DNA of 64,000 nucleotides from Gonocerus acuteangulatus (Eukaryota > Arthropoda > Insecta > Hemiptera > Coreidae): positions 53,077,359 through 53,141,358 of the forward strand of contig OX328132.1 in the NCBI GenBank assembly GCA_946811695.1. Direction: 5' to 3'. The notes under the pieces were generated by a model, which did no database searches, had not been told where the DNA came from, and saw only the letters and a program-made list of their open reading frames with translations. The translations under genes and the position numbers were made by a program. Shown piece by piece: positions 2,958-53,753 of this stretch; within the stretch, counting starts at the first letter, position 1, and each line of letters starts with the position of its first letter.

Positions 2958-3140
2958 TCTTAATGCGTTTCGTTCTTTTAGGCTTAGGGTCGGGAAAAAG
3001 TAGTACTTCCTTGTGTCACACCACTTTATTTTTTCCTGCCCTACATGTTTCGTGCTTAATTCCTTCGCACCTCATCAGGGGCACTTCTTGCTAAGAAGTC
3101 CTCTCGTCTCCTCATGTACCTTCTACGGAGGCAGGGGTAA
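2958..3140 (-). mobile_element. Penelope-like 3' fragment with hammerhead motif
   Basis: About 180 bp shared with both arms of the palindrome at 39463-39880 (common phrase 'cttttaggcttagggtcgg'). It sits in the (TA)n of the outer family A element, replacing the sequence that normally follows that tract. It contains a complete hammerhead motif at 3037-3083. Assignment to Penelope-like elements rests on the ribozyme type. Confidence 0.5.
3037..3083 (-). ncRNA. Small hammerhead ribozyme (copy a)
   Basis: Read on the minus strand: stem I UGCCC, core CUGAUGA (3078-3072), one extra G, stem II GUGC/GCAC with an 11-nt loop, GAAA (3051-3048), then CAUGUA and the stem I partner GGGCA. ACAUGU is self-complementary, so stem III has no loop in a monomer but would form between two molecules. 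The predicted cleavage follows the A at 3042. The extra nucleotide after the core departs from the canonical motif but is shared by all copies here. All invariant core positions are present. Confidence 0.65.
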
Positions 3141-31340: not shown

Positions 31341-31440
31341 ATTATAATTAAGCTAACCCTTTACTTTAATCTTCGAATTTTCGTAATAAACGAAGGTCAA
31401 AAAATAAGAACTACACTAAAAAGTTTTACGAAATTTATTT

Positions 31441-31483
31441 TTCCCTACATGTTTCATACATTTTTGGTGCCTCTTCAGGGGAA
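31441..31483 (-). ncRNA. Small hammerhead ribozyme, decayed (copy d)
   Basis: Minus strand: stem I UUCCC, core CUGAAGA (N7 = A, allowed), stem II weakened (GCAC against GUAU), GAAA, CAUGUA, stem I partner GGGAA. Stem I differs from copies a and b by a compensating G-C to U-A change. The stem II damage suggests poor activity. Confidence 0.5.
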
Positions 31484-31499
31484 CATTTTATAAATACAA

Positions 31500-39075: not shown

Positions 39076-39537
39076 TATAAGCCTATGCAAATTAAGCTTG
39101 AACTAATTACTTATAATTTTTTTGAATTTGTCTACATTTATTTGCAACTGTACAATGGCAGCGTGTGTTAAACGCTCATGCCTGCAAGACTAGGGAGTTG
39201 ATGTGGGCGACACATCACAAAAGAATTAAAATGAAGTAGGTGGAGAGCAAATAAATCTTAACAATTTCCTTAAAAAACATTGCTAAACATGCTATTACTT
39301 TAAAATTTTAAAATCTCGAATATTTCTGACCCAAAAAAGCAGTTTCACTTTTAACCCATTTCGCCGAAGGAAAGTAGGTATTAAGGTTGCACTCATTGTG
39401 GAAATTTTGAAAAATGTCTTCAAATCTTTAACCCCCGATATGCACATATATATATATATATATTAATGCGTTTTGTTCTTTTAGGCTTAGGGTCGGAAAA
39501 AGTAGCACTTCCTTGTGTCACACCACTTTATTTTTCA

Positions 39538-39584
39538 TGCCCTACATGTTTCGTGCTTAATTCATTCGCACCTCATCAGGGGCA
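39538..39584 (-). ncRNA. Small hammerhead ribozyme (copy b)
   Basis: Minus strand: UGCCC, CUGAUGA (39579-39573), G, GUGC/GCAC stem II, GAAA, CAUGUA, GGGCA. Identical in all core positions to copy a; the loop of stem II differs at one base. Confidence 0.65.
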
Positions 39585-39732
39585 CTTCTACAACAAAATC
39601 CATTTTTGTACCTCCCAATGTTAAACATATTTAAAATATACAATATTTTAAAAGTCCAGATTTTAAAATAACTTTAAAAAACATTTTTTTTTTTTTTTTA
39701 GGGAGGTACAAAAATGGATTTTGTTGTAGAAG

Positions 39733-39779
39733 TGCCCTTGATGACGTGCGAATGAATTAAGCACGAAACATGTAGGGCA
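39733..39779 (+). ncRNA. Hammerhead motif with core mutation (copy c)
   Basis: Same structure as copy b on the + strand, but the core reads UUGAUGA (C3 changed to U at 39738). C3 pairs with G8 in the active fold, so loss of cleavage is expected. Confidence 0.6.
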
Positions 39780-39879
39780 TGCAAAATAAAGTGTGTGTGA
39801 CACAAGGAAGTGCTACTTTTTCCGATCCTAAGCCTAAAAGAACAAAACGTATTAAGAAATATTTTGGGTCATATACAAG

Positions 39880-40760: not shown

Positions 40761-41124
40761 TAGCAAAGTAATATATATTACTAGCTGTTACCCGGCGTGC
40801 CATGCAACACCTACTTTCTGCATATAGAAAAGCCTAAATAAATTAGAAACCAAATAAGTATTATTACAATCTAATAACACGAATCTTTAACTGTTTCGAA
40901 CCCGTAACCTTCCAACAGTGAGTCCTAGACGACATTGTCCTAACCTATTACACCCCCCGTATCAAGACATACATGTATGCCAAGTTTTGTAAAAATCGGT
41001 CTAACGGTGTGGATTTTTATTTAAAAAAAGTCCGACTCGCAAGGAACTGCCTCATCTTAGCGCGGTTCCGTTCTTATCCCTAGTCTAATTTCGAAAGATT
41101 AAAATAGAAGCAGTTATTATTTTG

Positions 41125-41273
41125 TTGAGAGGAGATCGTTGACCGTTGATGATGCAAGGTAGGGATTGTCCGGGTTCGGTCACTGCTACTTAATAATACA
41201 TACCCCATATGTGTATGTATGTGGGCATATATATGTACATATGTGTACGTGTATATGTGTATGTGTATATGCT

Positions 41274-41321
<48 letters not shown>

Positions 41322-41469
41322 AGGTATATTTACATAGATATGTGCATATATGTCCTACTTGTATTTACAGCCCTGATGAAGGCTTGAAGTTCAAGCCGAA
41401 ACGTCGGCACAATAAAACCATTTTTAGGATAAAATGTAGTTTTATTAAGTAGCAGTGACCGAACCCCGA
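41125..41469 (+). mobile_element. 345-bp hammerhead-bearing element with TIRs and 14-bp TSD
   Basis: Flanked by perfect CAGTTATTATTTTG duplications (41111-41124, 41470-41483). The empty site is readable in the duplicated segments near 44690 and 46595 (reverse strand). Inner inverted repeats CGGGTTCGGTCACTGC... (41171-41194) and its complement (41444-41468) enclose (TA)n (41276-41320) and a hammerhead motif (41370-41408). The variable-length TSD fits target-primed retrotransposition; no coding capacity. Confidence 0.75.
41370..41408 (+). ncRNA. Small hammerhead ribozyme (copy e)
   Basis: Stem I GCC/GGC (41370-41372, 41406-41408), core CUGAUGA (41373-41379), one extra A, stem II of 6-8 bp (GGCUUG/CAAGCC), GAAA (41398-41401), then CGUC with cleavage expected after C41405. 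ACGU is palindromic, so stem III can form only between two RNAs. The same layout as copies a-d with a different sequence. Confidence 0.65.
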
Positions 41470-42627
41470 CAGTTATTATTTTGGTTCCACCAGTCTTGAA
41501 AGGTAGGATTTACAATCTTACCTGGAAGGGTCGGCAACACTAGAAACCGTCCCGCTAGTTACAAGGTCTTGGAATCTTGGAACCTGTTTTATTTTCGAAT
41601 ACATTATCCAACTATAAGCAATTAAAAAATAACAAGGAATTAAAAACAGACAAAAAGAACAGTTCGAATAAGCGAAATCAATTACTTTAAAGCTTTAAGC
41701 TCTTATTTCTCCGATTGTCATCGCCTAATCAAAACTTTCATTAGAACATTTTATGTAGAGCATTTTATAAGCTTTCTAATGGTATTCTTCCGTTTACACA
41801 GATTTTCAACCGTTTTCGAGATATTAATGAAAGTTCCCAAAATTTACATTATTTCTAGCAACAGAAAATTGGTCTCATTTTTCATATCCTGTTTTACACA
41901 CAAAATTTTCCCAACATAAGAAATTACAAAAATAAAAAGCAATAAAAAACGAAGGGAAGGAGACAAAAATTACAAAAAGAACGACAAAAACCCGTTCATA
42001 AGAACAAAACAGACTTATTTGAAGTTTTAAGCACTTATTTCTCCGATTGACATAACCTAATCAAAAATAGTTTTAGAATCTTTTTTGTAGAGAATTTAGT
42101 AAGCTTTCAAATAGTTTCTATCCACTTACCATGATATCCCAGCCGTGTTCGAGATATTAATGAAAGCATACGAAGTTCCCAAAACTTTTCATGTCTGTTC
42201 ATAAAATATTTTATTCTAACCCTTCCTTAACTCCAAACGTAACAAAACTTTCAACATATTAGTTTTAATGAAAGTAGAACATGCAGATAATGTTTCAACT
42301 GAATCCCGTAATTCTAAGTACCCAAACCAATAATGGTATTCAAAAACTATTTTTCCAATTTTCTCGAAAACGGTTAAAGCTATCGCCTTGAAAATGGTTC
42401 CATTCGTTTTCCTAGCTCAAGAAGCCTATAAAAAGAGTACTTACAAGCTTATGAACTCAAAAACGTAAGCGTTACGATTTTTTTTGCGCGAATTTCGCCC
42501 CAAATGCCATCTTCCAGTAGGCGGATTTTGCTGGTTAACGAACTTGACCTTTCAAATTGGATGACGGATTTTTGTACGAAATTTCATCAGAATCGGACCA
42601 TCCGTCTTCTAGCTAGAGAGCGAACAG

Positions 42628-42692
<65 letters not shown>

Positions 42693-43126
42693 TATACATA
42701 TATATATATATATATATACAAATTTGAACCACCGTTATTTTCGGTCTCTAGGGGTTCTGAAACGCGAAATTTTCTAGTCGGCACTTCCGGATTGTTTCAT
42801 TGTATCAACCTTATAAGCGGGGTTCCTCCCTATGGGGGAGGGAGGAACCGCGCTAAAAACACAGACAGCAGCTGGTAGACGTTTTTGACCTGGCCTATGA
42901 CAATCCCCTGATCAAGACCAACCTGTGTGCCCAGTTAGATCAAAATCTGTTAAACGGTTTGGATTTTTATAGGGAACAACCATACAGACAGACAGCTGGT
43001 AGAGGTTTTACGGCACTCTCCAGAATAGGATCTACCTGTGTACCGAGTTTAGTCAAAATCGGACGAACGGTGTGGATTTGTATAAGGGACAAACATACAG
43101 ACAGACAGTTATACAGACAGACGTTT

Positions 43127-44772
<1,646 letters not shown>

Positions 44773-45127
44773 TTTTTGTCTTTGATTTTGGTACTTAAAA
44801 TTATGTGATTCAGTTGAAACATTTTCTGCATGTTCGAATTTCATCAACACTAATATGCTGAAATTTTGGTTATGTTTGGAGTAAAGGAAGGGTTAGAATA
44901 AAATATATTATTAACAGACAAGAAAAGTTTTGGTAACTTTGTATACTTTCGTTAGTATCTCGAAAACCGTAGGCAATCTTGGGAAGCGGAAGGTTACCAT
45001 TCGAAAGCTTACTAAATGCTCTACAAAAAAGGTTCTGCAGAAAGTTTTAATTACGCGATGTCAATCGGAGAAATAAGTGCTTAAAACTTTAAAGTAATTC
45101 ATTTCATTCATCCGAACGATTCTTTTT

Positions 45128-45260
45128 AGCGCGGTTACTCCCTATCTCCATGAAGAGAACCCGCTTATGAGGTTGACCTCATGACGCAATCCGGAAGTGC
45201 CGACTAGAAACTTTAACGTTTCAGACCTTATAGATCACGAAAATATAGGTGGCCCAAATT

Positions 45261-45672: not shown

Positions 45673-46333
45673 TTTTTTGTACTTACAAACATGGGATTCA
45701 GTTGAAATATTTTTTGCATGTTTGAATTTCATCAAAACTAAAATGTTAAACTTTTAGTTACGTTTGGAGTTAAGGAAGGGTTAGAATAAAAAATTTTATG
45801 AACAGACATGAAAAGTTTTGGGAACTTCGTATACTTTCATTAATATCTTGACACACGGTTGGGAAATTTTGATAAGTGGATAGAAACTATTTGAAAGATT
45901 TCTAAATTCTTTACAAAAAAGATTCTGAAACAATTTTTGATTAGGTGATGTCAATCGAAGAAATAAGCGCTTAAAACTTCAAATACGTCTGTTTAGTTCT
46001 TATGAACGGGTTTTTGTTCGTTCTTTTTGTAATTTTTGTCTCTTTCCCTTAGTTTTTTATTGATTTTTATTTTTGTAATTTCTTATGTTGTATTTGTAAG
46101 GCAAATATATTTGTGTGTAAAACAGGATAGGTAAATTGAGACCAATTTTCTGTTGATAGAAATAATGAAAAATGTTGGTAACTTCGAATATTTTAATTAA
46201 TATCTCGAAAACGGTTGAAAATCTTGGGAAGCGAAAGGTTACCATTCGAAAGCTTACTAAATGATCTACAAAAAAGGTTCTGAAGAAAGTTTTGATTAAG
46301 CTATGTCAATCGGAGAAATAAGTGCTAAAATTT

Positions 46334-47140
46334 TAAAGTAATTGATTTCGTTTATTCGAACGGTTCTTTTTGTCTGTTTTATTCCTTGTTATTTTTTAAT
46401 TGCTTATAGTTGGATAATGTATTTGACAATAAAACAGGTTGAGTAAAATAACAAAAAAAAATTTATTGTTAGAAATATAGATTTCCAAGATTCCAAGAGC
46501 TTGTAACTAGCGGGACCGTTTCTAGTGTTAGCCGACCCTTCCAGGTAAGATCGTAAATCAAGACCTTTCAAGACTGGTGGAACCAAAATAATAACTGCTT
46601 CTATTTTAATCTTTCCAAATTAGACTAGGGATAAGAACAGAACCGCGCTAAGATGATACAGTTCCTGCGAGTCGGACTTTTTGTCTTTGATTTTGGTACT
46701 TAAAATTATGTGATTCAGTTGAAACATTTTCTGCATGTTCGAATTTCATCAACACTAATATGCTGAAATTTTGGTTATGTTTGGAGTAAAGGAAGGGTTA
46801 GAATAAAATATTTTATTAACAGACAAGAAAAGTTTTGGTAACTTTGTATACTTTCGTTAGTATCTCGAAAACCGTAGGCAATCTTGGGAAGCGGAAGGTT
46901 ACCATTCGAAAGCTTACTAAATGCTCTACAAAAAAGGTTCTGCAGAAAGTTTTAATTACGCGATGTCAATCGGAGAAATAAGTGCTTAAAACTTTAAAGT
47001 AATTCATTTCATTCATCCGAACGATTCTTTTTAGCGCGGTTACTCCCTATCTCCATAAAGAGAACCCGCTTATGAGGTTGACCTCATGACGCAATCCGGA
47101 AGTGCCGACTAGAAACTTTAACGTTTCAGACCTTATAGAT
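46334..47140. repeat. Recent direct duplication, right copy
   Basis: Pairs with 44429-45235. The right end falls inside the family A 3' module, after 'cagaccttatagat', where the copies diverge abruptly. Confidence 0.85.
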
Positions 47141-50496: not shown

Positions 50497-50964
50497 CTTT
50501 GGGGGTAATTGTGACGTCACTCGGGGTTTGGTTATATAAAACACGTGCTCATTTTAATAATATTTACTTATATTAATAATTAAACACAATATATATACAT
50601 ATGGCATGCCGCTAGTAAATCATCTTAACAATAGCCTAATAAAATATTAAAATTATATGCTAACCTAGGAACTACTTTGTACATACTATAATCTATCTTA
50701 TACTACATATATATACAATTAATACTAACGCTACTTGCGGATATCCATCACTACTCCTCATTACACCTAAGTATGGCCATACTGATAAGTTTTTACAACA
50801 TAACACATACGGAGTAACTATTCACAAAAACACACGTGAGCGTCCTATATTCGGAAACTGGCTAACCTCCTAGGCAAGAACCTTCCAGCTATATCCTCCC
50901 AGAGTCTACCATAGAGGTAGGATCTCTAGGCGCAGTTATTAGCCTATGACGAACCGCCACAGCA
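50492..50964 (-). repeat. 3' LTR of the gypsy element
   Basis: 473 bp, begins TGCTGTGGCGG after the polypurine tract and ends at the (TA)n. Its last ~65 bp ('ggttatataaaacacgtgct' region) match 58256-58320. The terminal bases expected before the primer site (aataag) are replaced by the microsatellite. Confidence 0.8.
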
Positions 50965-51522
50965 CTCCCCCCTAATAACTGCGTCCAAAAATCTGACGTT
51001 TGGCTTAATGGTGCGGCCAAACCTACTCTTCACCGGGTGTACTGGTAGTCCTTCTTCCTTGTCCTCTTCTTCAGCGGCTGCAGTTGGTTCAATAGAGGTT
51101 TCAGGGTTATCAGCTGCTGTGGTTACTCTTCTGCCATCTTCATCCTGGGCAAGCAGGAAAGCTGGTTTCACTCTGTCTAGCGAAACTGTGAGCTCTCTGT
51201 TCGGCAACTGAAGTGTGAATAGCTTTTCGGTCCTCCGTAGAACAGGATAAGGACCATTATACGGTGGGGTAAGGCCCTTCTTCAACGTGTCTTCCCTCAA
51301 AAATACAAATTTGCGTGTTGCTAAAGCCTGATGTACAAACATCTTCTTACTAGCTCGAAATGGACGTAGATGGCTTAAATCTTCCTTCAACCGGCGAACA
51401 AATTCTTGTACGGTATAACGTCCGAGAGATGGAGCTATGAACTCACCAGTCAACCGCAAGTTCTGACCATAAACTGATTCCGCGACACTGAAACCTGTGT
51501 CATCTCTTATCACGGTCCTCAA
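50944..51522 (-). pseudogene. Gypsy integrase C-terminal part
   Basis: 192 codons: RTVIRDDTGFSVAESVYGQN, FRASKKMFVHQAL, then a chromo/GPY-like segment (YNGPYPVLRRTEKLFTLQL, VSLDRVKPAFL) and an acidic tail ending in GECCGGSS. The stop lies inside the LTR, with the polypurine tract coding for the last residues, which is usual in this lineage. One frameshift separates it from 51553-53211. Confidence 0.85.
50965..50973 (-). other. Polypurine tract
   Basis: AGGGGGGAG on the minus strand directly before the LTR start TGCTGTGG. Confidence 0.75.
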
Positions 51523-51552
51523 TCCTAGAAGAACTGTAGGAAGCAGGTTAGC

Positions 51553-53211
51553 CTAATTGTGCACATCCAGGTGTACGATCAAAGCTGCTTTCAAAGTCCT
51601 ATGCCATCTTTCCATACACCCGTTAGATTGAGGGTGGTATGGGGATGTCCTGACCTTGTTGGTATCAAGGAACCGAGTAAGACAACAAAAGAGCTCACTC
51701 TCGAATTGCCTCCCTTGGTCCGTAGTCAATCTAGATGGCACACCAAATCGAGACACCCATCCATGGTAAAATGTTTCTGCTATTATCTCAGCCGTTATGT
51801 ACTCCACTGGCACAGCTTCCGGCCAGCGCGTATATCTGTCAGTCATCGTGACCAGATACCGCTTACCTTTTGACGGCAGTAACGGTCTGACTATATCCAT
51901 ATGGACGTGCTCAAAACGCTCAGCGAATTCAAAGTTACCAGGGCTTGTAACCGTGTGTCTTCCAACTTTACCTCGCTGGCATCCAATACATGTCTGTGCC
52001 CAAGCGCTGACATCCTTATTTAAACTTGGCCAAAAGTACTTATGAGCAACAGATTTTCGGGATGCTCTCACTCCGGGGTGGCTCGCATTATGTAGAGAAT
52101 CGAAGATCTCCCGACGAAGTGCTGCCGGAACGTAGACTAGCACTTGCTTCTGGGATGTCTCACACAGGATAGGTTCGGCTGCTCCAGGTAAGCTGATCAA
52201 TTTCAACTGCAAATTCTCCTGCTTCTTCAGAGCTTCGACCTCCGGATCCTTCTTCTGTAGAGCTGCAAGTCTATCCAAATCGCTAGCAAGATGAATAGCT
52301 TCCACGCGTGATAAAGCGTCAGCTACCTGGTTGTTCTCGCCATCAACGTGCTGAATATTGGTCGAAAATTGGGAAATAAAATTTAACCACCTCATCCTAA
52401 TCGGAGATGCTGTAGACGAGATGCTTGGCTTTTGATGCATAGCGTAGACGAGTGGTCTGTGATCAGTAAAAATGACAAAGCTCCTCCCTTCGATGATAGG
52501 TCGGAAGTATTGCACATCTGAATGTATAGCCAGCAGTTCACGATCGTATGCTGAATATGTACTTTGTGCCTCCGATAATGCTTTTGAGTAAAATCCCAAA
52601 GGTGTCCAATGATCTTCTTCCCACTGCTGAAGAACTGCTCCCATACAACTACTGGACACATCGCAAGCCCATGATAATTTGTCATCTGGTTTGGGATGAG
52701 TAAGCAATGCTGCTGACTTTAAGCTATCCCTACAGCGCTCAAATGCTTCAGTGCTCTCCTCCGTCCACGCAATCAGCGATTTGTCGTTTTTCTTAGAGCC
52801 TTGGAGATATCGGTTGAGAATCCGTTGTACCGCAGCGGCCTTGGGAATGCAGCCACGATAAAAATTAATCATCCCTAAAAATCTGCGTAACGATCTAACG
52901 TCCTGGGGCTTTGGATATTCGGCAATGGCCTGAACTTTTGCTTCCTGCGGCCTTATTCCCTCCGACGTTATGTGATAACCAAGGAAATCGATCTCACTCA
53001 AACCAAATTGACACTTATCTGGGTTAAGTGTGTGCTCCTTATGGCTTGAAGAGGCAATAAGCACATCATCCAGGAAAACAAAGCAGAAGTTCAAATCTCG
53101 GAGTATGCTGTCCATAAAACGCTGAAAAGTTTGCGCAGCATTTTTCAGTTCAAAACACATCCTTGAAAATTCAAATAGTCCAAACGGAGTAATTATTGCT
53201 GTCTTGGGCAC
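51553..53211 (-). pseudogene. Gypsy pol: RT palm, RNase H, integrase zinc finger and catalytic core
   Basis: 552 open codons. RT active site CFVFLDDVLIAS (about 43-54), then a deletion of roughly 20-25 residues so that SHKEH runs straight into LNPDKCQFG. RNase H has D (WACDVSSS), E (YDRELLAI) and D (IFTDHRPL). Integrase H2C2 zinc finger: H-x3-H and C-x2-C (ASHPGVR...CIGCQRG). Catalytic acids: HMDIV, TTDQGRQFES and GCMERWHRTLK. The deletion in the RT palm probably inactivates it by itself. The frame is lost upstream at ~53211-53250. Confidence 0.9.
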
Positions 53212-53249
53212 ATCTACCTCTCTAATCGGAATATGATAATAAGCCGTTA

Positions 53250-53741
53250 CTAAACTAGTCTTGAGAAATGGGTCTTACCGTACAGGTTGTTGCGAAAGTC
53301 CATTATATTTGGAACGCCATATCGGTCAGGCACTGTCTGAGAATTAAGTTGGCGGAAGTCTCCACAAGGTCGAACTTTTCCATCTTTCTTGTCCACAACG
53401 TGCAGAGCACTCGACCATTGTCTCTTAGATGGACGACATATACCCATTTCCACCATATGATTAAACTCCTCCTTCACCTTCAGGTACTTATCAGGATGTA
53501 GTCTTCTAGCCTTCGCAGAGACAGGATGTCCGGTCGTTTCAATGAAGTGAACGGTGTCATGCTTCACCGGATCCTTCATGGAACTTGGTCTGGTAATGTC
53601 CGGAAATTTGCGAAGCAAGAAGGCGTATAGGTGTCCTTCGGGAACGGCTGAGATAGATGCTGGAATCTCGTTGATGATTTTGCCTCTAGAAGTCAACCCT
53701 GTTGTCTTGTCAATCAGTTGTCGACCCTTGAGATCAACCAT
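53250..53741 (-). pseudogene. Gypsy RT N-terminal part
   Basis: 163 codons covering the protease-RT linker and RT fingers: VSAKARRLHPDKY, ALHVVDKKDGKVRPCGDFRQ, NSQTVPDRYGVPNI, HFSRLV. It ends where a one-base shift moves the frame into 53211-51553. A TAA separates it from the protease frame, in the same phase. Confidence 0.85.
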
Positions 53742-53753
53742 CAGGTTGTAGTA

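What the first reader, a model, noticed from the sequence alone, without database searches (positions are those of the whole stretch)
41125..41469. Complete 345-bp element with hammerhead ribozyme, TIRs and 14-bp TSD
A short non-coding element has all boundaries visible: perfect 14-bp target duplication, a readable empty site in the 44690 and 46595 segments, 24-bp inner inverted repeats, (TA)n and a hammerhead core whose stem III is the palindrome ACGU. Penelope-like elements are known to carry small hammerheads that act as dimers. A miniature, TIR-bearing, ribozyme-carrying derivative with this layout is not one I can name.
Basis: partly seen in the sequence, partly recalled or inferred. Interest (0 to 1): 0.85.

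Follow-up and report, generated by a model that had tools for sequence, protein, structure and literature searches.

The report
Penelope retroelement end spread by transposon
The 345-base element is a truncated end piece of an ordinary Penelope-type retroelement with its small ribozyme motif, which jumped once into another mobile element and was then copied about two thousand times as that element's passenger.

Summary
In detail: a 345-bp insert (41125-41469), a perfect 14-bp target duplication, empty sites, 25-bp inverted repeats, (TA)n and a minimal hammerhead core with stem III ACGU. The reading as a free-standing miniature TIR element does not hold.

(1) The near-identical genome copies examined sit at the same base of the same host repeat. 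Exact filled-site junctions: 1950. Exact empty sites: 4893. Reversed-pattern control: 0. So there was one insertion event, later copied with its host.

(2) The host (41030-42856, minus strand) looks like a non-autonomous Helentron (HINE): 13-bp subterminal inverted repeats, A/T-run targets, 42 different outer flanks.

(3) The insert is a Penelope-like element (PLE) 3' end (pLTR with hammerhead), with a short inverted piece of the same end plus 'tail' on its left, the anatomy published for Penelope (PMC3846280). The pLTR-tail junction 20-mer occurs 5359 times. A 3.5-kb copy bounded by it in inverted orientation holds a 400-aa open reverse-transcriptase frame.

Self-cleavage was not tested; Rfam gives no hammerhead hit. 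A new family of a known kind, with a hitch-hiking history.

The parts
41125..41469 (+). Truncated PLE insert (pLTR 3' end with hammerhead, plus short inverted tail piece at its left)
   Evidence: 14-bp TSD, empty sites, same ends in PLE copies at other sites L081, L083
41111..41124 (.). Left copy of 14-bp target duplication CAGTTATTATTTTG
41470..41483 (.). Right copy of 14-bp target duplication
41125..41171 (-). PLE tail (inverted); on the minus strand it continues the pLTR 3' end
   Evidence: in L081 from 1491 on the same tail runs straight into the pLTR end and hammerhead
41172..41196 (-). Left inverted-repeat arm = 25 bp of the PLE pLTR end, inverted
41442..41466 (+). Right inverted-repeat arm = end of the PLE pLTR
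41284..41317 (.). (TA)n run; whole insert 321-432 bp in the copies measured, mainly through this stretch
41373..41405 (+). Minimal type I hammerhead core; stem III is ACGU without loop; predicted cut after C41405
   Evidence: cleavage not tested
41411..41446 (+). AATAAAAC...GTTTTATT inverted repeat downstream of the hammerhead
   Evidence: sequence
41030..42856 (-). Host repeat, filed by structure as HINE (non-autonomous Helentron), 1827 bp with the insert; 5' end at 42856, 3' end at 41030 on the minus strand
   Evidence: homology of most of 30 loci runs between about 41019-41035 and 42850-42862, several break inside; A/T-run target and 42 different flanks; ends compared with PMC4067079
44321..44777 (-). 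Host-repeat copy with empty site
46229..46682 (-). Host-repeat copy with empty site (duplicate of the previous one)

Best explanation
The 345-bp element is a severely truncated copy of a PLE family of this genome. It is the family's 3' pLTR end, with a TA-rich stretch and a minimal hammerhead, joined at its 5' side to a short inverted piece of the same 3' end with the ~45-bp tail. It was made by the PLE reverse transcriptase/endonuclease at an AT-rich site inside one copy of a HINE-like repeat, giving the 14-bp duplication (event shown; enzyme inferred from the ends). The filled repeat then transposed, presumably by Helentron-encoded Rep/helicase (inferred), and carried the passenger to about 2000 places. 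The hammerhead, if active, belongs to processing of PLE transcripts, probably as a dimer or with protein help (inferred from published PLEs).
For: Same site in 30 of 30 copies and 30 of 30 loci. 1950 exact filled left junctions against 4893 exact empty sites, control 0 for both. 42 distinct outer flanks of the host in the 51 of 60 loci where a script found its left end; 41 of 42 end in three or more A, one in AAAAAG. pLTR-end/tail 20-mer 5359 times, control 0. Of the 100 listed places 38 in three tandem arrays were dropped; among the other 62, 19 of 19 neighbours closer than 6 kb face outward, at a continuum of 254-5157 bp. The 3.48-kb pair C1:2936010-2939490 contains, in the 1201 bases read, a 400-aa uninterrupted frame with RVT_1 (E 2.4e-08) and 36.6% identity to the RT part of the L082 frame (E 2.7e-62 against that one sequence); the 942-aa stop-to-stop frame of L082 holds RVT_1 and GIY-YIG. 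Other GIY-YIG PLEs here carry the same kind of motif: 13 of 20 loci have one, 10 of 20 on the same strand downstream of the domain, with covariation in stems I and II of 12 sister motifs. Published Penelope anatomy matches: adjacent inverted pLTR, optional 31-bp tail on one of them, TSDs of 8-10 bp where present, solo pLTRs (PMC3846280, passages); the tail lies between two internal RT start sites (PMC11167929, parts 1-2 of 4).
Against: The full coding region of this PLE family was not read, so its GIY-YIG domain is unseen. Only one copy at another site shows a clear TSD (L083, 13 bp unambiguous, 17 bp shared), and that copy is itself in a duplicated region. L085 gave no clear repeat, but the right-hand stretch that I compared did not reach its outer end. 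The HINE label rests on structure; the distance of the repeat from the 3' end fits only partly, and no Helentron protein was sought. The hammerhead of this family is poorly recognised by covariance models.
Confidence: 0.93

Rival explanations
1. A self-standing non-autonomous ribozyme element (mini-PLE or retrozyme-like) that moves on its own through RNA, using PLE proteins in trans.
For: Very short PLE copies with both ends do occur elsewhere (outward pairs at 254-361 bp; L083 with its own TSD).
Against: The ~2000 copies counted by the filled junction are one insertion copied by its host. Distances of the 19 outward pairs form a continuum from 254 to 5157 bp, as expected of truncation during reverse transcription, though 19 pairs from one stretch of one contig are few. 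No tandem repeat of the unit in the window or in the copies, the hallmark of animal retrozymes (PMC7229834, part 1 of 6 and passages).
Confidence: 0.05
2. A MITE or other TIR DNA transposon that picked up a hammerhead.
For: 25-bp inverted repeats and a TSD.
Against: The left arm is 47 bp inside the end; 14-bp TSD; the same ends bound a 3.5-kb element with a PLE reverse transcriptase.
Confidence: 0.01
3. The hammerhead is a chance or dead motif; only the PLE anatomy is real.
For: No Rfam hit; weak score with a model of sister motifs; the minimum-energy fold of the 65-nt RNA keeps stem II but pairs GAUG with CGUC across the core.
Against: Core, stem I and palindromic stem III agree with the motifs of other PLEs here, whose stems covary; 0 hits in 200 simulated windows; an active, protein-assisted hammerhead is published for an Anolis PLE (PMC11167929).
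Confidence: 0.1

Closest known systems
Penelope / Poseidon-type PLEs with pLTR, inverted pLTR and tail (Penelope of Drosophila virilis; Pen families of Adineta vaga, PMC3846280; Poseidon of Anolis, PMC11167929)
   Same: Outward-facing inverted 3' ends, optional tail of 30-45 bp at one of them, minimal hammerhead near the 3' end of the pLTR, AT-rich target, TSD of 8-17 bp, severe truncation, PLE reverse transcriptase in a long copy
   Different: This copy is reduced to one pLTR end and 25 bp of the inverted one, and was amplified by a different transposon. Tail lengths differ (31 bp in Pen2a, about 45 here).
HINE / DINE-1 (non-autonomous Helentrons, PMC4067079)
   Same: Host element: 13-bp inverted repeats, one 2-4 nt from the 5' end, short palindrome near the 3' end, T-run target, microsatellite and internal repeats
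   Different: The 3' repeat lies 27-40 nt from the end against the 38-60 reported for mite HINEs; carries a nested PLE; autonomous partner not sought
Metazoan non-LTR retrozymes (PMC7229834)
   Same: Type I hammerhead in a short non-coding animal repeat of ~300 bp, low GC
   Different: Minimal motif; single unit, not tandem; spread as passenger of a DNA element

Membership tests
Penelope-like elements (PLE) | A long relative with the same ends encodes a PLE reverse transcriptase | tested here: met
   One long copy sampled: L091, 400-aa open frame, RVT_1 2.4e-08; 36.6% to the PLE frame of L082, E 2.7e-62
Penelope-like elements (PLE) | GIY-YIG endonuclease in the same long copy | not tested
GIY-YIG is shown for sister families only
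Penelope-like elements (PLE) | Inverted pLTR ends with optional tail | tested here: met
   19 of 19 close neighbour pairs outward-facing, tandem arrays dropped; tail continues the pLTR end in L081
Penelope-like elements (PLE) | Minimal hammerhead in the pLTR | tested here: met
   Core and stems, sister motifs with covariation; but weak in the covariance search and absent from the Rfam results
Penelope-like elements (PLE) | Variable TSD at AT-rich sites in independent insertions | tested here: inconclusive
   14 bp here, 13-17 bp in L083; L085 not settled; too few independent copies read
HINE (non-autonomous Helentron), for the host | subTIR 2-4 nt from the 5' end, T-rich target | tested here: met
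   minus-strand 5' end TTTTTAGCGCGGTTCC; 41 of 42 left flanks end in three or more A on the plus strand
HINE (non-autonomous Helentron), for the host | second subTIR 38-60 nt from the 3' end and a palindrome of 5-10 bp there | tested here: inconclusive
   repeat starts 40 nt and ends 27 nt before the 3' end; palindrome GCAG-TTC-CTGC in other copies has 4-bp arms, with one extra base in the window copy
HINE (non-autonomous Helentron), for the host | No target duplication (recalled); autonomous Rep/helicase partner | not tested
   A runs on both sides hide short duplications; partner not sought
Metazoan retrozyme | Tandem ~300-bp units with canonical type I hammerhead | tested here: not met
   single unit in the window and in the copies; minimal motif
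TIR DNA transposon / MITE | Inverted repeats at the very ends and a transposase-bearing partner | tested here: not met
   left arm 47 bp inside the end; the long copy sampled encodes RT

The most novel reading that the evidence does not exclude
A rolling-circle DNA transposon has become a vehicle for a self-cleaving ribozyme. About 2000 copies of a HINE-like element now carry a PLE hammerhead, and where two such copies lie close together in the same sense (L017, L025) a read-through transcript would hold two hammerheads, so could form the dimer and release unit RNAs. That would be a route to ribozyme-bounded RNAs, perhaps circles, outside PLEs and retrozymes.
Probability: 0.08. Interest if true: 0.6.

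Novelty: new member of a known kind. Interest (0 to 1): 0.3.

Why it matters
It shows that this striking anatomy needs no new class of element. It also warns that many near-identical copies with a perfect TSD can be a single insertion carried by another transposon. The 1950 filled and 4893 empty sites form a natural series of one hammerhead evolving without its parent element, which would let one ask whether the ribozyme decays neutrally. In the 12 PLE hammerheads aligned here the core keeps one extra nucleotide between A9 and stem II, which may explain why standard covariance models miss it.

Tried and rejected
Rejected: MITE/TIR transposon, free-standing miniature element, retrozyme (see rivals). 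Rfam searches gave no hammerhead; the relaxed hits in the TA stretch (mir-297 and others) lie below their gathering scores. A paper search by motif letters found 155 papers, of which the 10 listed are unrelated by their titles. A search of solved structures with the RT fragment found nothing at E 0.01. A test whether the hammerhead is better conserved than the host flanks was not done, because the copies in hand were chosen by similarity to the element. The Cervera and De la Pena 2014 paper on PLE hammerheads is not held and is known to me only through papers that cite it. Counts of the intact hammerhead and of the right junction in the genome were asked for and not answered.

Full report
What is there. 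Joining the flanks with one duplicate gives a sequence that aligns without a break at the site to two other copies of the surrounding repeat in the window; these two are a duplicate of each other.

Copies in the genome. The window lies in an unnamed 1.1-Gb genome. A search with the whole insert scored 40 of 1062 candidates and gave 30 loci. A script found 30 complete copies in them: one each in 29 of the 30 loci and a second in L017. In L025 two left ends were found without a matched right end and were dropped. All 30 complete copies lie at the same site by their flanks; 19 of 30 keep an exact duplication of 14 bp or more, the rest differ by small changes. A second search with the hammerhead part only (40 of 63 candidates scored) gave 30 loci, all at the same site on the right. 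In 22 the exact left-tail string was found; of the other eight, seven carry the same left end with one or a few changes and one (L038) is rearranged. The two sets make 47 distinct loci by their coordinates. Both searches favour the copies most like the query. Exact counts over the whole genome do not: 1950 filled left junctions and 4893 empty sites, control 0 in both. So the duplication and the likeness of these copies stem from one insertion that was copied with its host.

The host. In most of the 30 loci homology to the window runs from about 41019-41035 to 42850-42862; several break inside through rearrangement. The host starts GTCCGACTCGC and ends GGAACCGCGCTAA on the plus strand. In 51 of the 60 loci a script found the left end of a filled host copy; these have 42 different outer flanks, 41 ending in three or more A and one in AAAAAG. 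Some flanks are themselves host-like sequence, so nested. Read on the minus strand the host begins TTTTTAGCGCGGTTCC and ends GGAACCGCGCTAA-GATGAGGCAGTTCCTTGCGAGTCGGAC-TTTT, with a strong hairpin next to the 5' end (z -6.2). [quoted passage not shown] The 5' side and the target fit. On the 3' side the repeat lies 27-40 nt from the end and the palindrome has 4-bp arms, so the fit is partial. I file the host as HINE-like on structure alone; its autonomous partner was not sought.

The parent. L081 holds a copy at another site in which the 47 bp outside the left arm run straight into the pLTR end, the inverted repeat and the (altered) hammerhead of the same strand. [quoted passage not shown] The junction of pLTR end and tail, as a 20-mer, occurs 2516 + 2843 times, control 0. 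At least two of the 100 listed places (C1:3564663 and 5598575) abut filled host junctions listed, so the count includes some passengers. Tandem arrays with 58-76 bp spacing inflate it too. I left out the 38 listed places in three such arrays; among the other 62, 19 pairs of neighbours lie closer than 6 kb, and all 19 face outward, at 254 to 5157 bp. From the pair at 3.48 kb I could still fetch 1201 bases: one frame is open throughout (400 aa), has an RVT_1 domain, and is 36.6% identical to the RT region of the L082 frame. The L082 frame (942 aa from stop to stop) has RVT_1 and GIY-YIG and lies in an element whose 550-bp ends are inverted at 99.6%, each with a hammerhead motif. The parent is thus a Penelope-like element. 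Its own GIY-YIG domain was not seen.

The hammerhead. Of 20 GIY-YIG loci, 19 match the second half of the L082 frame by tblastn, and 13 carry a minimal hammerhead pattern: 10 on the same strand downstream of the domain, 3 on the other strand; 7 carry none. Over all loci and the window the pattern gave 20 distinct strings; 12 of these 20, this one included, form at least 3 bp of stem I and 4 bp of stem II when one extra nucleotide is allowed, and 8 do not. An alignment of 12 sister motifs (11 from the GIY-YIG loci, one from L028; repeats of the same string and the other families left out) supports stems I and II: 5 of 9 pairs with changes on both sides, 98.1% of cells paired, 0 of 500 shuffles as high on four of the five measures (194 of 500 on the number of pair types), and slid structures far lower. 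In this register one nucleotide, G in 12 of 12 rows, remains unpaired between A9 and stem II; here it is A. A review lists a paper on an extra nucleotide in the core of a viroid hammerhead (title in the references of PMC6155905); that it is the same position is my recollection. The model finds four other motifs in the window at E 8e-13 to 5e-7 (3028-3092 minus, 31432-31492 minus, 39529-39593 minus, 39724-39788 plus) but not the motif of this finding with default filters. Without filters on 601 bases that motif is the best match, with only 13.8 bits. It differs by a longer stem II and a 2-bp stem III. No Rfam model of a hammerhead matches. The fold of the 65-nt RNA alone is more stable than shuffles (z -2.8) but pairs part of the core. 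Whether it cleaves is open. In the Anolis PLE the motif cleaves only with protein present and is not needed for insertion in vitro (PMC11167929, parts 1-2 of 4).

Comparison. [quoted passage not shown] The tail of the Anolis element is the stretch between two internal start sites of reverse transcription (PMC11167929). Hammerhead motifs, usually minimal, are stated to be present in all available PLE sequences (PMC6155905, passages), and more than 6000 type I motifs, minimal or canonical, occur in a coral genome (PMC7229834, part 1 of 6 and passages). The layout of the insert is therefore known. What I did not meet in the listings (6 to 20 rows shown each), nor in what I read of the papers named, is a report of a PLE end amplified inside a HINE. 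Nesting is ordinary for transposons, so I rate it as a curiosity.

Verdict. New member of a known kind, interest 0.3.

Noticed in passing
window 39456-39862: A second, nearly palindromic PLE fragment: two ends in inverted orientation (93-bp arms at 97% and 68-bp arms at 94%), with a hammerhead match on each strand, the plus-strand one altered in the core.
   Followed up: partly
window 31432-31492 (-) and 3028-3092 (-): Two further minimal PLE hammerheads; the one near 3040 belongs to a fragment of the 39.5-kb family lying within another copy of the host repeat.
   Followed up: partly
L090 and G000:C1:2618815-2621282, 6773658-6773981, 7644849-7645390: Tandem arrays with spacings of about 58-76 bp that contain the PLE pLTR-end/tail junction, and repeats of the tail alone (about 41-44 bp) in L090: minisatellites that seem seeded by the PLE 3' end.
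   Followed up: no
L082:937-4493: A PLE with a 942-aa stop-to-stop frame (RT + GIY-YIG) whose 550-bp ends are inverted repeats at 99.6% identity, each with a hammerhead motif; looks young.
   Followed up: partly
A1 (12 PLE hammerheads) and window 41373-41405: 12 of 12 aligned sister motifs and this one keep one unpaired nucleotide between A9 and stem II; it may explain the misses of standard hammerhead models.
   Followed up: partly
window 43784-45235 and 45679-47140: A 1.46-kb duplication (94.9%); much of the 3-5 kb and 41-47 kb stretches is related to the host repeat.
   Followed up: no
window 50944-53753 (-): Open frames of 202, 573 and 167 aa that read like a Ty3/gypsy polyprotein (RT, RNase H, integrase); judged by eye, no domain search.
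   Followed up: no
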